This document shows, one piece after another, positions 1 through 2,061 of a stretch of DNA of 5,327 bases. Source of the stretch: Chloroflexota bacterium (GTDB taxonomy: Bacteria > Chloroflexota > UBA6077 > CF-72). The first letter of the stretch is position 1. Every line of letters starts with the position of its first letter. The notes under the pieces are model-generated. The model worked only from the letters and a program-made list of their open reading frames with translations, was not told where the DNA came from and did not search any database. Made by a program: the position numbers and the translations under genes. The stretch spans positions 1 through 5,327 of the forward strand of contig JAFAPL010000526.1 of assembly GCA_019247135.1 (NCBI GenBank). Reading direction: 5' to 3'.

Positions 1-237
1 GATCACGACCAGCCGTGTGGCGCTGAGGCGAACGCGGCCAAGCTGCTGGGCGGCGACGCCGGTTTCCGAGCGTGTGACGCGGCCCTGCAAACGCTCGGTG
101 GGTTCGGCTACTCGCGCGAGTTCCACGTGGAACGCGTGTGGCGCGAAGTGCGCCTGTTCCGCATCGCGCCGATCTCTCAGGAGATGGTCCTCAATTACTT
201 AGCGGAACGTGTCCTGAACTTACCCAAGAGTTATTGA
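1..237 (+). CDS. Acyl-CoA dehydrogenase, C-terminal fragment (5' end outside window)
   Basis: Frame 1 is open from the first base to a TGA at 235-237 and gives 78 residues. The segment DAGFRACDAALQTLGGFGYS (residues 19-38) followed by REFHVERVWREVRLFRIAPI (39-58) and SQEMVLNYLAERVLNLPKSY (59-78) is the typical last part of the C-terminal helical domain of FAD-dependent acyl-CoA dehydrogenases, which oxidise an acyl-CoA thioester to the 2,3-enoyl-CoA in fatty-acid or branched-chain catabolism. The GGFGY motif and the arginine-rich helix are diagnostic. In medium-chain enzymes the catalytic glutamate lies in an IYEGT motif just after this arginine helix; here the equivalent stretch reads RIAPISQEM, so that glutamate is not at its usual place. 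Either the base sits elsewhere in the missing part, as in isovaleryl-CoA dehydrogenase, or the subfamily differs. The gene ends naturally and is cut only by the window edge. The family call is firm; the substrate is unknown. Confidence 0.9.
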   Translation, partial: DHDQPCGAEANAAKLLGGDAGFRACDAALQTLGGFGYSREFHVERVWREVRLFRIAPISQEMVLNYLAERVLNLPKSY

Positions 238-249
238 ATTTGTTTGGAA

Positions 250-321
250 CGGAGCCGCTCATGAGCGGCTCCGCACGGCGGATCATGATCCGCCGTGGCC
301 AGGCGATCATGATCGCCTGGC
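250..321. repeat. First block of three abutting 24-bp palindromes
   Basis: The units are 250-273 (centre 261/262), 274-297 (centre 285/286) and 298-321 (centre 309/310). The second and third share the inner ten bases GATCATGATC with the first unit of the other block; the first has GCTCATGAGC. Each unit pairs across all 24 positions. The first unit follows the TGA of the acyl-CoA dehydrogenase gene closely enough to be transcribed as its 3' trailer. Confidence 0.97.
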
Positions 322-338
322 AACACTATGCCGATGTT
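322..338. other. 17-bp non-palindromic spacer splitting the array
   Basis: The spacer reads AACACTATGCCGATGTT. Only its outer four bases are complementary (AACA at 322-325 and TGTT at 335-338), and it lacks the CATG centre. It could be a separate element, a decayed unit that has lost 7 bp, or a scar of insertion. Its length brings the two flanking palindrome centres to 41 bp apart instead of 24. Confidence 0.8.
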
Positions 339-410
339 CCCAGCCGATCATGATCGGCTGGGCAGGTTGGCGCATGCGCCAACCTGGGAGCCCGAGCATG
401 CTCGGGCTCC
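339..410. repeat. Second block of three abutting 24-bp palindromes
   Basis: The units are 339-362 (centre 350/351), 363-386 (centre 374/375) and 387-410 (centre 398/399). The first has the GATCATGATC core; the other two have GCGCATGCGC and GAGCATGCTC. The last unit begins GGAGCC and ends GGCTCC, as the very first unit of the array does apart from one extra base pair at its edge, so the outermost units resemble each other at their ends. Confidence 0.97.
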
Positions 411-420
411 ATCTAACCAA

Positions 421-451
421 CGCATATCGGGCCAACAATTGCGATAATGCG
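421..451. promoter_or_regulatory. Imperfect inverted repeat, candidate operator upstream of the MFS gene
   Basis: CGCATATCG at 421-429 faces CGATAATGCG at 442-451; the arms are complementary apart from one unpaired base, with 12 bp between. The repeat covers the presumed core promoter, 5 bp before the exporter start, where a repressor would normally bind. No regulator gene is in the window, so this is only a positional inference. Confidence 0.35.
443..448 (+). promoter_or_regulatory. Candidate -10 box (GATAAT) for the MFS gene
   Basis: GATAAT matches the sigma-70 type TATAAT at five of six positions and lies in the AT-richest part of the spacer. The exporter ATG is only 9 bases after it, so transcription would start at or within a base or two of the ATG and give a leaderless or nearly leaderless message. 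No purine-rich ribosome binding site is seen before the ATG, which agrees with this. No good -35 box is visible. Confidence 0.4.
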
Positions 452-456
452 AAGTA

Positions 457-2061
457 ATGGCAGCCGCGAATCCCGCCCTGGCGTTGCCCCGAGCCGTAGA
501 GCGGCCGCGGTTCGGACTCGCCTACAAGTGGCTCGTCCTGATCGCCATGCTGCCAGGCATGACCGTCTTCCTGCTCGACGTCACCATCGTCAACGTCGCG
601 CTGGCCAAGCTCGGCTCCGTCTTCGACGTCGACGTCGCCACCGTCCAGTGGGTCATCACCGGCTACGCACTCGCCAGCGGCATCGCCACGCCGATGGCGA
701 GCTTCATCGAAGGCCGCTTCACCATGAAGCGCGTCTGGGTAATGGCGATCGCGACCTTCACCGCCGCGAGCGCCCTGTGCGGCCTCGCGCCAGCGTTCTG
801 GGTGCTCGTGTTCGGCCGGATCCTGCAGGGCTTCGCCGGCGGCATGCTCATCCCCATCGCGATCAGCACCCTGTTCCAGGCATTCCCGCCCAACGAACGC
901 GGTGCCGCCATGGGCTTCTTTGCCATCCCGATGGTCGCGGGCCCAGCCTTCGGGCCGACCATCGGCGGCTACATCGTCACGCATTGGGACTGGCGACTGG
1001 TGTTCTTCGTGAACGTGCCCGTCGGCATCGCTGCCGTCACGCTCGCCATGCTGTGCCTGCATCCCGGCAAGCCCCGCCTCGGCATCCGCTTCGACACGAT
1101 CGGTGCCATCCTTTCGTCGACGGCCTTCGGACTGACCCTGTATGGCCTGTCCAGAGTGAGCGCGGACGGTTGGAGCGCCCTCAGCGTTCGAGGTCTGATC
1201 GGCACTGGCCTGACGGCGCTCGTGGCCTTCCTGTTCTGGGAATTTCGTCAGGAGCAGCCGTTACTGGACGTACGCCTGTTCCTCAATCCCCTGTTCCTGA
1301 ATGCCAACATCGTCGGCTGGGTCAGCACCATCGCGCTGTTCGGCGCCGAGTTCATGCTGCCGCTCTACCTGCAGAACCTGCGCGGGCTGTCCGCGCTCGA
1401 CACCGGCCTGCTGTTGATGCCGCAAGGCCTCGCCGTCGCGGTGTCCGGGCCAATCGCCGGTCGCCTGGTCGACAGGATCGGTGCCCGCTGGATCGTGCTG
1501 GTGGGCTTCGCATTGTTGAGCTTCAACACGTTCCAGCTCTCACAGATCACGCTGACCACAGGTTTCGACGAGCTGAAGTTACTGCTGGTCGTGCGTGGCG
1601 TCGCGCTCGGGTGCACCATGCAGCCGACGCAGCTCACCGCCATGTCAGCCGTCGCGCCGCGTCTGCGAACCAACGCCAGCTCACTGAACAACGCGATGCG
1701 TAATGTGTTTCAGTCGTTCGGTATCGCAATGCTGTCGACCATCGTTCAGACGCAGACAACCGTCCACACGACCATCCTCGAATGGAACGTGCGTCAGGAC
1801 ACCATGCCTGGCCAGTTCCTCAACCAGTTGACCAATCACCTGGAGGTCAACAACAGCTTGCCGGACCCGGCCGCGACCGTCGCGGCGATGGAGATCATGG
1901 TCGGCCAGATCACCCAGCAAGCGGCGGTCCTCGCGTTTGGCGATGCATATCGTGTGACGTTCGTGGCCGCGGTGCTCGCCTTCTTCCTGGGCATGCTGCT
2001 ACCTGGCAAACGCTCGGCCGCCCAACGCTCGCCCGACGAAGCGGTGGCGATGGGCCACTGA
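457..2061 (+). CDS. DHA2-family (EmrB/QacA-like) MFS multidrug efflux transporter
   Basis: The 534-residue product has the size and hydrophobic pattern of 14-TM drug:H+ antiporters of the inner membrane, which expel toxic compounds using the proton gradient. Visible signatures are LLDVTIVNVAL at residues 39-49 in TM1 (motif D1), the GRILQGFAGGM segment at 120-130 in TM4, AGPAFGPTIGG at 161-171 in TM5 (antiporter motif C) and DWRLVFFVNVPVG at 178-190. The motif A loop between TM2 and TM3 is degenerate: ASFIEGRFTMKRV at 81-93 has Glu where Asp is usual and lacks the usual Gly before the Arg-Lys pair. The matching loop in the second half, GRLVDRIGARW (335-345), keeps the standard form. A polar insert at about 440-475 precedes the last helix (about 497-516). 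The ATG is the first in frame after the AT-rich spacer and gives a normal N-terminus; no ribosome binding site is seen. No EmrA-type adaptor or regulator is adjacent. The substrate cannot be told from sequence. Confidence 0.93.
   Translation: MAAANPALALPRAVERPRFGLAYKWLVLIAMLPGMTVFLLDVTIVNVALAKLGSVFDVDVATVQWVITGYALASGIATPMASFIEGRFTMKRVWVMAIATFTAASALCGLAPAFWVLVFGRILQGFAGGMLIPIAISTLFQAFPPNERGAAMGFFAIPMVAGPAFGPTIGGYIVTHWDWRLVFFVNVPVGIAAVTLAMLCLHPGKPRLGIRFDTIGAILSSTAFGLTLYGLSRVSADGWSALSVRGLIGTGLTALVAFLFWEFRQEQPLLDVRLFLNPLFLNANIVGWVSTIALFGAEFMLPLYLQNLRGLSALDTGLLLMPQGLAVAVSGPIAGRLVDRIGARWIVLVGFALLSFNTFQLSQITLTTGFDELKLLLVVRGVALGCTMQPTQLTAMSAVAPRLRTNASSLNNAMRNVFQSFGIAMLSTIVQTQTTVHTTILEWNVRQDTMPGQFLNQLTNHLEVNNSLPDPAATVAAMEIMVGQITQQAAVLAFGDAYRVTFVAAVLAFFLGMLLPGKRSAAQRSPDEAVAMGH

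What the first reader, a model, noticed from the sequence alone, without database searches (positions are those of the whole stretch)
250..410. Gapless tandem array of six different but individually perfect 24-bp palindromes
Each unit is a perfect 24-bp palindrome, with symmetry ending exactly at its border, and the units abut at a strict 24-bp period (3 + 17-bp spacer + 3). A perfect 24-bp palindrome needs 12 matched pairs (chance about 1 in 4^12 per site), so six in register cannot be accidental. Unlike CRISPR, REP/BIME or ordinary tandem repeats, the sequence is not conserved between units while the self-complementarity is. Possible roles: a cruciform or hairpin DNA element, a chain of stacked RNA hairpins acting as a 3' trailer or leader, a landing platform for a protein that reads shape or the CATG centre, or the footprint of an enzyme that makes or copies hairpins.
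Basis: seen in the sequence. Interest (0 to 1): 0.93.

Follow-up and report, generated by a model that had tools for sequence, protein, structure and literature searches.

The report
Hairpin-chain repeat element after stop codons
Six different but individually perfect 24-base mirror sequences stand in a row right after a gene's stop codon in a bacterium most likely of the Chloroflexota; a related genome carries the same kind of chain at 17 places, often at gene ends, and a sister genome lacks it at two matching sites, so it is likely a small mobile DNA element that would be recognised by its folded shape rather than by its letters.

Summary
In detail: six perfect 24-bp palindromes at 250-410, three plus 17 bp plus three, all centred on CATG. 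The array is not unique. A Chloroflexota genome (G001) whose MFS protein is 72% identical to the window's carries such units at 17 places with at least two in tandem: 22 ends, 17 of them triplets. Copies with both ends read TTTGG - palindromes - about 120-240 bp of further hairpins - palindromes - CCAAA. Two sites of one operon lack the element in sister genome G002, and a third holds a single hairpin. Across 45 distinct units the arms co-vary almost completely: 180 cells changed on both sides, 3 on one side. At 16 ends beside a stop codon the first hairpin starts 2-16 nt from it (median 11). The window copy looks like a compact copy that lost its centre. Best reading: a non-coding, probably mobile multi-hairpin element whose fold, with a fixed CATG loop, is what matters. 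Enzyme, mobility and RNA effect are untested. No Rfam match at threshold, no REP tag, and no paper describing it in the searches made.

The parts
1..237 (+). C-terminus of an acyl-CoA dehydrogenase gene, stop codon TGA at 235-237
   Evidence: open frame; Pfam PF00441 E 1.7e-13
238..249 (+). T-rich left edge ATTTGTTTGGAA, like the TTTGG edge of other copies; 12 nt between stop codon and first palindrome
250..273 (.). palindrome unit 1, CGGAGCCGCTCA/TGAGCGGCTCCG
   Evidence: hairpin in the folds
274..297 (.). palindrome unit 2, CACGGCGGATCA/TGATCCGCCGTG
298..321 (.). palindrome unit 3, GCCAGGCGATCA/TGATCGCCTGGC (one base pair away from a G001 unit)
322..338 (+). 17-bp centre AACACTATGCCGATGTT, read as the remnant of the internal region that is about 120-240 bp in copies with both ends
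   Evidence: sequence; other copies; the remnant reading is inference
339..362 (.). palindrome unit 4, CCCAGCCGATCA/TGATCGGCTGGG
363..386 (.). palindrome unit 5, CAGGTTGGCGCA/TGCGCCAACCTG; one base different from the unit at L092 1934-1957 of G001
387..410 (.). palindrome unit 6, GGAGCCCGAGCA/TGCTCGGGCTCC (outer-unit type, one base pair away from a G001 unit)
411..422 (+). right edge ATCTAACCAACG; CCAA lies about 4 nt further out than in most other copies
457..2061 (+). MFS transporter gene downstream; the relatives L039 and L040 are 72% and 73% identical in the best segment

Best explanation
The array is most likely a shortened copy of a dispersed, non-coding repeat element that is built as a chain of hairpins, that likely moves with the help of an unidentified enzyme which would read the folded single strand, and that here stands directly after a gene's stop codon. 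Shown: the same kind of 24-bp CATG-centred palindromes form pairs or triplets at the ends of 17 elements in a related genome, in inverted order around further hairpins where both ends are present, mostly inside T-rich TTTGG edges; two sites of one operon are empty in a sister genome; the arms of a unit change together. Inferred: the window copy lost the internal region by deletion. Inferred: the enzyme recognises the fold (10-bp stem, G8-C17 pair, CATG loop) rather than the stem letters. Inferred: the two arms stay complementary because one arm is copied or repaired from the other when the unit is single-stranded, as in quasi-palindrome correction. Inferred: in the message the hairpins stand where REP hairpins are reported to stall ribosomes, and they would also hinder 3' exonucleases.
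For:: the tandem core pattern occurs 13 times in G001, 0 times for the reversed control, and 0 times in G002; 17 elements with at least two tandem units in the G001 stretches fetched, 22 ends, 17 of them triplets; 63 of 75 collected units are perfect (53 of 63 in G001, 4 of 6 in G002, 6 of 6 in the window); perfect CATG-centred units were accepted alone, imperfect ones only beside a good neighbour, so the share is biased upward; between the second permease gene and the next ATPase gene, and after the second ATPase gene, the element is present in G001 and absent in G002 (overlapping stop/start TGATG; 2 bp between the aligned flanks); between the binding-protein and first permease genes G002 has a single hairpin; 97.3% of cells paired (shuffled 55.6%), 180 two-sided against 3 one-sided changes, covariation score 0.978 (shuffled 0.218; slid structures at most 0.135); 37 of 48 paired changes on the minimum spanning tree are of transversion type, which cannot pass through a G.T wobble. 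T-rich TTTGG edge; 16 ends lie 2-16 nt from a stop codon, median 11; window unit 5 differs from a G001 unit by one base; internal hairpins also show some two-sided changes.
Against: No enzyme was found: no Y1 transposase in G001 or G002. Seven stretches with reverse transcriptase genes were examined and none is bracketed by elements, though in G002 one has an inner-module match about 0.8 kb from its frame; the remaining RT matches were not examined. No target duplication could be read. Insertion rests on comparison with one sister genome about 80% identical in DNA. At a fourth site (L093) G002 has a different hairpin repeat, and at a fifth (L052) the aligned stretch ends at the upstream gene, so these are not clean empty sites. 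There is no empty site for the window itself, because the gene upstream of the MFS gene differs in G001 and G002. In the element with two alike inverted ends (L093) the minimum-energy DNA fold pairs four of its six palindromes end to end in one long stem instead of a chain of hairpins. 6 of 34 aligned ends have T instead of G in the first G of TTTGG and some lack the motif altogether, among them both ends of L112. Selection on an RNA fold could also give co-variation. 5 of 17 G001 elements and 1 of 3 G002 elements had no stop codon within 10 bp in my heuristic gene calls.
Confidence: 0.58

Rival explanations
1. The arrays are host-maintained RNA elements: hairpin chains at the 3' end of messages, kept by selection for mRNA protection or translation control, with mobility only in the past.
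For: First hairpin 2-16 nt after a stop codon at 16 ends; REPs within 15 nt of a stop codon are reported to stall ribosomes (PMC12306157, passages); very stable RNA fold, z -11.7.
Against: Only 3 of 450 cells are one-sided changes to a G-U pair, whereas GT pairing was often seen in GTAG REP stems and taken there as a hint of transcription (PMC3733652, passage); 37 of 48 paired changes are of transversion type; two sites differ in presence between sister genomes.
Confidence: 0.23
2. The perfect symmetry is purely a by-product of replication errors (template switching at quasi-palindromes) acting on old repeats, without any function or dedicated enzyme.
For: Template switching turns imperfect palindromes into perfect ones (PMC7202029, abstract and start of the introduction); it is discussed as a cause of concerted arm evolution for nematomorph mitochondrial palindromes (PMC6649704, passages).
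Against: It does not explain the 24-bp length, the nearly invariant CATG centre and invariant G8, the ordered unit types within triplets, the TTTGG edges or the dispersed copies.
Confidence: 0.12
3. Array of operators for a homodimeric DNA-binding protein that reads duplex DNA around CATG.
For: Conserved core GNNCATGNNC; location upstream of an MFS transporter gene.
Against: The seven outer base pairs of each arm differ widely between units yet remain complementary, which duplex reading of the centre does not require; 15 of 21 elements lie at a gene 3' end.
Confidence: 0.04
4. Assembly artefact of a metagenome contig.
For: No genome is held for the window, so its source could not be checked.
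Against: The same architecture occurs on many contigs of another genome, with unit sequences one change apart.
Confidence: 0.02

Closest known systems
REP / REPIN (BIME) repeats moved by RAYT Y1 transposases
   Same: Short extragenic palindromes in many copies, inverted pairs, a share of hairpins close after stop codons, compensatory or alternative complementary stem residues reported (PMC3116915 passages; PMC3733652 passages, which also names GTAG repeats in Chloroflexi; PMC12306157 passages).
   Different: No GTAG or CGTC tag at the edge, up to three 24-bp palindromes per end instead of one short hairpin, unit stems that vary almost freely, no Y1 transposase found in G001 or G002.
MITEs (non-autonomous miniature transposons)
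   Same: Small, dispersed, inverted ends, filled and empty sites; no coding function recognised.
   Different: End units conserved in fold more than in sequence; no target duplication or parent transposon recognised.
Mobile hairpin elements of mitochondria (sponge RHE; double-hairpin elements of fungi, the latter recalled)
   Same: Hairpin repeats, some tandem, that invade intergenic DNA.
   Different: In sponge RHE the stems are conserved and substitutions fall in the loops (PMC2800124, abstract and section 22); here the loop is nearly fixed and the stems vary.
Perfect coding palindromes of nematomorph mitochondria
   Same: Perfect palindromes; template switching is discussed there as a cause of concerted evolution of the arms (PMC6649704 passages).
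   Different: Those lie in coding sequence and vary in length; here they are non-coding, of one length and one loop, in dispersed copies.
Whalefall-1 RNA (Rfam RF01762)
   Same: G001 outer units give weak matches, best 23.2 bits.
   Different: Below the gathering score of 37 bits; not a member.

Membership tests
REP / REPIN | Conserved GTAG or CGTC tetranucleotide at the hairpin border | tested here: not met
   34 aligned ends: edge is T-rich plus GG at -4/-3 (G in 27 and 33 of 34); no GTAG or CGTC column pattern
REP / REPIN | Cognate Y1 (RAYT) transposase in the genome | tested here: inconclusive
   PF01797: 0 in G001, 0 in G002, 1 in G003; found in 5 of 14 control genomes; completeness not given, and the window's own genome is not held
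REP / REPIN | Many extragenic copies, often as inverted pairs | tested here: met
   17 elements with two or more tandem units in the G001 stretches fetched, 5 of them with such a run at both ends
MITE | Terminal inverted repeats | tested here: met
   T-rich TTTGG edges at most ends and inverted unit order; the window's right edge and both L112 ends deviate
MITE | Filled and empty sites between relatives | tested here: met
   Two sites of one transport operon, G001 against G002; a third holds a solo hairpin, two further ones are ambiguous
MITE | Target site duplication | tested here: inconclusive
   None recognisable at the two empty sites, but the orthologues are about 80% identical
MITE | Related autonomous transposon | tested here: inconclusive
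   None recognised; only the Y1 and reverse transcriptase families were searched
Known structured RNA (Rfam 15) | Match at or above gathering score | tested here: not met
   0 matches in the window and in seven G001 stretches; sub-threshold matches only in a stretch with two elements
CRISPR array | Identical direct repeats separated by unique spacers | tested here: not met
   Units abut and differ in sequence
Intrinsic terminator | GC-rich hairpin followed by a T run | tested here: not met
   On the + strand the T-rich tract lies before the hairpins and ATCTAACC follows unit 6; on the - strand TTCCAAACAAAT follows unit 1. The terminator scan tool was not run
Integron attC site | R boxes and recognition by an integron integrase | not tested
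   Considered only as an analogy for fold-based recognition (recalled)

The most novel reading that the evidence does not exclude
A new class of fold-addressed mobile DNA: an element whose ends are chains of three 24-nt hairpins read by stem length and CATG loop only, whose arms are rewritten from each other while single-stranded, and which inserts precisely behind stop codons so that each insertion places a stack of hairpins under the terminating ribosome.
Probability: 0.26. Interest if true: 0.9.

Novelty: new variant of a known kind. Interest (0 to 1): 0.73.

Why it matters
In the dispersed bacterial hairpin repeats described so far each family keeps a largely fixed stem, with some complementary variants. 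Here the stem is almost free and the fold is kept: 180 two-sided against 3 one-sided changes in 450 cells. If the reading holds, two open questions become testable: whether a recombinase can address DNA by hairpin shape alone, and how the arms of short palindromes are kept identical in bacteria. It also offers a natural series of hairpin chains 2-16 nt behind stop codons for studying how 3' structure affects translation termination and message decay.

Tried and rejected
Viral pattern scan: 38 stretches matched a three-core pattern. Scanned for perfect palindromes of 18 bp or more they show none in abutting 24-bp units; ordinary tandem repeats and arrays of shorter palindromes are common among them. 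Outer-unit pattern in viral contigs: 0. No match of a G001 element in plasmids nor of the array in phages; the whole window against plasmids gave only gene matches in the 10 of 145 records listed. Phylum scan of 400 genomes: 17 with a match, G001 with 13 places and the other 16 with one each; the reversed control gave one match in each of 6 genomes; I did not check each single match for palindromy. Relatives scan: 2 of 61 genomes. Class scan with a slightly different pattern: 5 of 29, all but G001 with at most 2 per strand. A single loose core gave 112 matches in G001 against 69 for its reversed control, and 112 against 109 in G002, so single cores are not informative. All these patterns except the loose core miss units centred on AACATGTT, so counts are lower bounds. 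A covariance model of the unit (built from the same units) found in 55 sources (293,029 bases) the known units and a few degraded ones, and listed nothing in the five G003 stretches given to it, L176-L180. Strand polarity from wobble mismatches: too few to decide. Papers: no description of such arrays in the lists returned (searches were on related topics); only openly licensed PMC papers are held.

Limits of counts: the G001 and G002 stretches were picked from pattern and BLAST hits, so the number of elements is a lower bound, and contig ends cut some. The alignments of ends hold 11 and 7 ends that I chose. Element edges for gene distances were set by eye from the T-rich border and genes were called by codon-position GC: 15 of 21 elements listed there (window) have a stop within 10 bp of that edge; 12 of 17 in G001, 2 of 3 in G002, 1 of 1 in the window. 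The 17 G001 elements are not the same set as the 17: one search leaves out L046 and the first element of L047 and includes the one-unit copies L102 and L104; L118 and the solo hairpin of L175 were also left out. One search measures the 16 ends (15 elements) for which such a stop was found; the right end of L125 was left out and would give 22 nt (positions 2114 and 2137).

Full report
WHAT IS THERE. The window (5,327 bp) holds, left to right, the end of an acyl-CoA dehydrogenase gene (stop at 237), the array, an MFS transporter gene (457-2061), a DUF1810 protein, a methyltransferase on the minus strand and two open frames without a Pfam match at E 0.001. In a first-order Markov model of the window a perfect 24-bp palindrome appeared in 1 of 400 resamples. 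As single-stranded DNA the region folds into six 10-bp hairpins with CATG loops, plus a weak 4-bp one in the 17-bp centre, z -12.2 against dinucleotide shuffles; as RNA the same, plus a basal stem from the edges, z -11.7. It matches no Rfam family at threshold.

RELATIVES. The MFS protein finds two Chloroflexota genomes, 72% and 73% identical in the best segment (L039 in G001, L040 in G002). The window's own genome is not held, so the assignment to Chloroflexota rests on these relatives. G001 contains 13 places with two cores at 24-bp spacing, against 0 for the reversed pattern; G002 contains none. Of 400 genomes drawn from the phylum, G001 alone has more than one such place; 16 others have one, and 6 have one for the reversed control. 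In the class of 29 held genomes, DNA of a complete element matches G001 (47 matches), G002 (27), G003 (13) and G027 (1). The palindrome triplets thus look narrow in distribution (G001 and the window; G002 has mostly single outer units and one degraded triplet), while inner hairpin modules are shared by three sister genomes.

ANATOMY OF THE ELEMENT. In G001 the palindromes come mostly as triplets: 22 ends with at least two tandem units in 17 elements, 17 of the ends triplets. Left-type ends have outer unit GGAGNNCG (with variants), middle CCAGGCGG and inner CGCAGGCG or CGGCGCCG; right-type ends have outer GGAG, middle CACCGTGG, CAGAACGG or CAGGTTGG, and inner GCCAGGCG or GCCAGCCG. Five elements keep runs at both ends, in inverted order around roughly 120-240 bp that is itself rich in hairpins. 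One of these, L093, has two alike ends, and its lowest-energy DNA fold pairs most of the two ends with each other instead of forming the separate hairpins. Outside the outer palindromes lies a T-rich edge, in consensus TTTGGNN; of 34 ends aligned, G stands at -3 in 33, at -4 in 27, and T at -6 in 31. Other copies are reduced to one unit or to hybrids (L102, L104, L096). The window array has the unit order of two right-type ends; its unit 5 differs from a G001 unit (L092 1934) by one base, and units 3 and 6 differ from G001 units by one base pair. I therefore read it as a compact copy whose middle is reduced to 17 bp (inference).

INSERTION. In G001 a branched-chain amino-acid-type transport operon (Pfam: binding protein, two BPD_transp_2 permeases, two ABC ATPases) carries three copies at gene ends, with a fourth upstream near the contig start (L047). 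In G002 the matching operon has no element between the second permease and the first ATPase gene, where stop and start overlap as TGATG, and none after the second ATPase gene, where only 2 bp separate the aligned flanks. Between the binding-protein and first permease genes it has a single hairpin of the outer type with one internal mismatch. A solo palindrome is what recombination between the two outer units would leave, since palindromes are direct repeats as well as inverted ones (inference). Two further sites did not give clean empties: at L093 G002 holds another hairpin repeat, and at L052 the alignment stops at the upstream gene. In G001 the first ATPase gene apparently takes its start codon from the last palindrome of the element (L047 4787-4789; sequence; that translation starts there is inferred).

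THE ARMS CHANGE TOGETHER. Over 45 distinct units (33 perfect, 12 imperfect) and 10 pairs, 97.3% of 450 cells form a standard pair. 180 cells are changed on both sides and only 3 on one side; the covariation score is 0.978 against 0.218 for shuffles and at most 0.135 for slid structures. Perfect units entered the set without needing a neighbour, imperfect ones only beside one, which favours pairing somewhat. G8-C17 never varies and the centre hardly does. On a minimum spanning tree of the 33 perfect arms, edges with up to three differences carry 48 paired changes, 37 of transversion type and 11 of transition type. Transversion-type exchanges such as G-C to C-G cannot pass through a wobble pair, so the usual slow route of RNA stems does not explain most of them. 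Random choice among the three other bases would give 2:1, so the ratio itself shows no strong bias; the point is the scarcity of one-sided states. Arm copying (template switching, or repair within the hairpin) explains that directly; strong selection for the fold remains possible. Similar proposals exist for perfect palindromes elsewhere (PMC6649704, passages; PMC7202029, abstract and start of the introduction).

POSITION. Of 21 elements examined with heuristic gene calls, 15, including the window, have a stop codon within 10 bp of the T-rich edge; 12 of 17 in G001, 2 of 3 in G002, 1 of 1 in the window (and for the window). For 16 such ends the distance from stop codon to first palindrome is 2-16 nt, median 11; in the window 12; one more end, not measured there, would be 22. 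REPs within 15 nt of a stop codon are reported to stall ribosomes (PMC12306157, passages), so the window array would have that effect on the acyl-CoA dehydrogenase message if transcribed (inferred, untested).

MECHANISM AND STATUS. Shown: existence, dispersal, modular ends, presence/absence between sister genomes at two sites, fold kept while stem sequence varies, frequent proximity to stop codons. Inferred: mobility by an enzyme acting in trans, recognition of the folded strand, arm copying, effect on messages, loss of the middle in the window copy. Against a simple REPIN assignment: no GTAG or CGTC tag and no Y1 transposase in G001 or G002. For it: REP families too are reported with complementary stem variants, and GTAG repeats are reported from Chloroflexi (PMC3733652, passages). 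I therefore file it as a new variant of the dispersed hairpin-repeat / MITE kind and not as a member of a named family. Paper searches returned no description of it from the openly licensed library.

Noticed in passing
L005 3032-3065, L009 3715-3805, L012 1071-1162 and 4890-4942, L016 657-730, L026 4364-4437, L030 5906-5987, L032 1032-1130, L035 841-906 (IMG/VR contigs): Several viral contigs carry clusters of two short palindromes, GCTCATGAGC and ACCGGTGC-like, in varying order, some contigs at several places; a different kind of palindrome array.
   Followed up: no
L099 about 276-556, L100 about 1920-2173, L105 about 1984-2277, L106 about 1893-2185 (G001); L179 about 1751-2018, L180 about 1779-2039 (G003): Related elements without CATG palindromes but with inverted GC-rich hairpin modules; their inner stems appear exchanged as complementary blocks (GCCGC/GCGGC against GGGGC/GCCCC), so the same fold-over-sequence pattern may hold there.
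   Followed up: partly
L196 about 1312-1501; L118 about 1880-2000: G002 carries another hairpin repeat (CTCTCCC...GGGAGAGG with GGGGTGAGGG) at the gene end where G001 has the L093 palindrome element, and again inside or beside an element at L118; gene ends may be shared hotspots.
   Followed up: no
L047 4787-4789: The first ATPase gene of the transport operon in G001 seems to use an ATG inside the element's last palindrome as start codon; the encoded MSELL stands where G002 has MTDLL and G003 MAELL.
   Followed up: partly
L039 and L040, roughly 60-90 bp upstream of the MFS start: The MFS gene in both relatives has a shared AGTGANNNNTCACT palindrome running into CTAACCTATA; the window keeps CTAACC but has the array where that operator-like palindrome would be.
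   Followed up: no
L096 1649-1672: A non-palindromic hybrid of two neighbouring unit types (left arm begins CCAAGCCG, right arm ends CGGCTGCG), as expected from a deletion between units.
   Followed up: no
L190 6632-6719 and frame 7485-9626 (G002): A match to the inner hairpin module lies about 0.8 kb before a frame with reverse transcriptase homology; only one such module was seen there, so no bracketing.
   Followed up: partly
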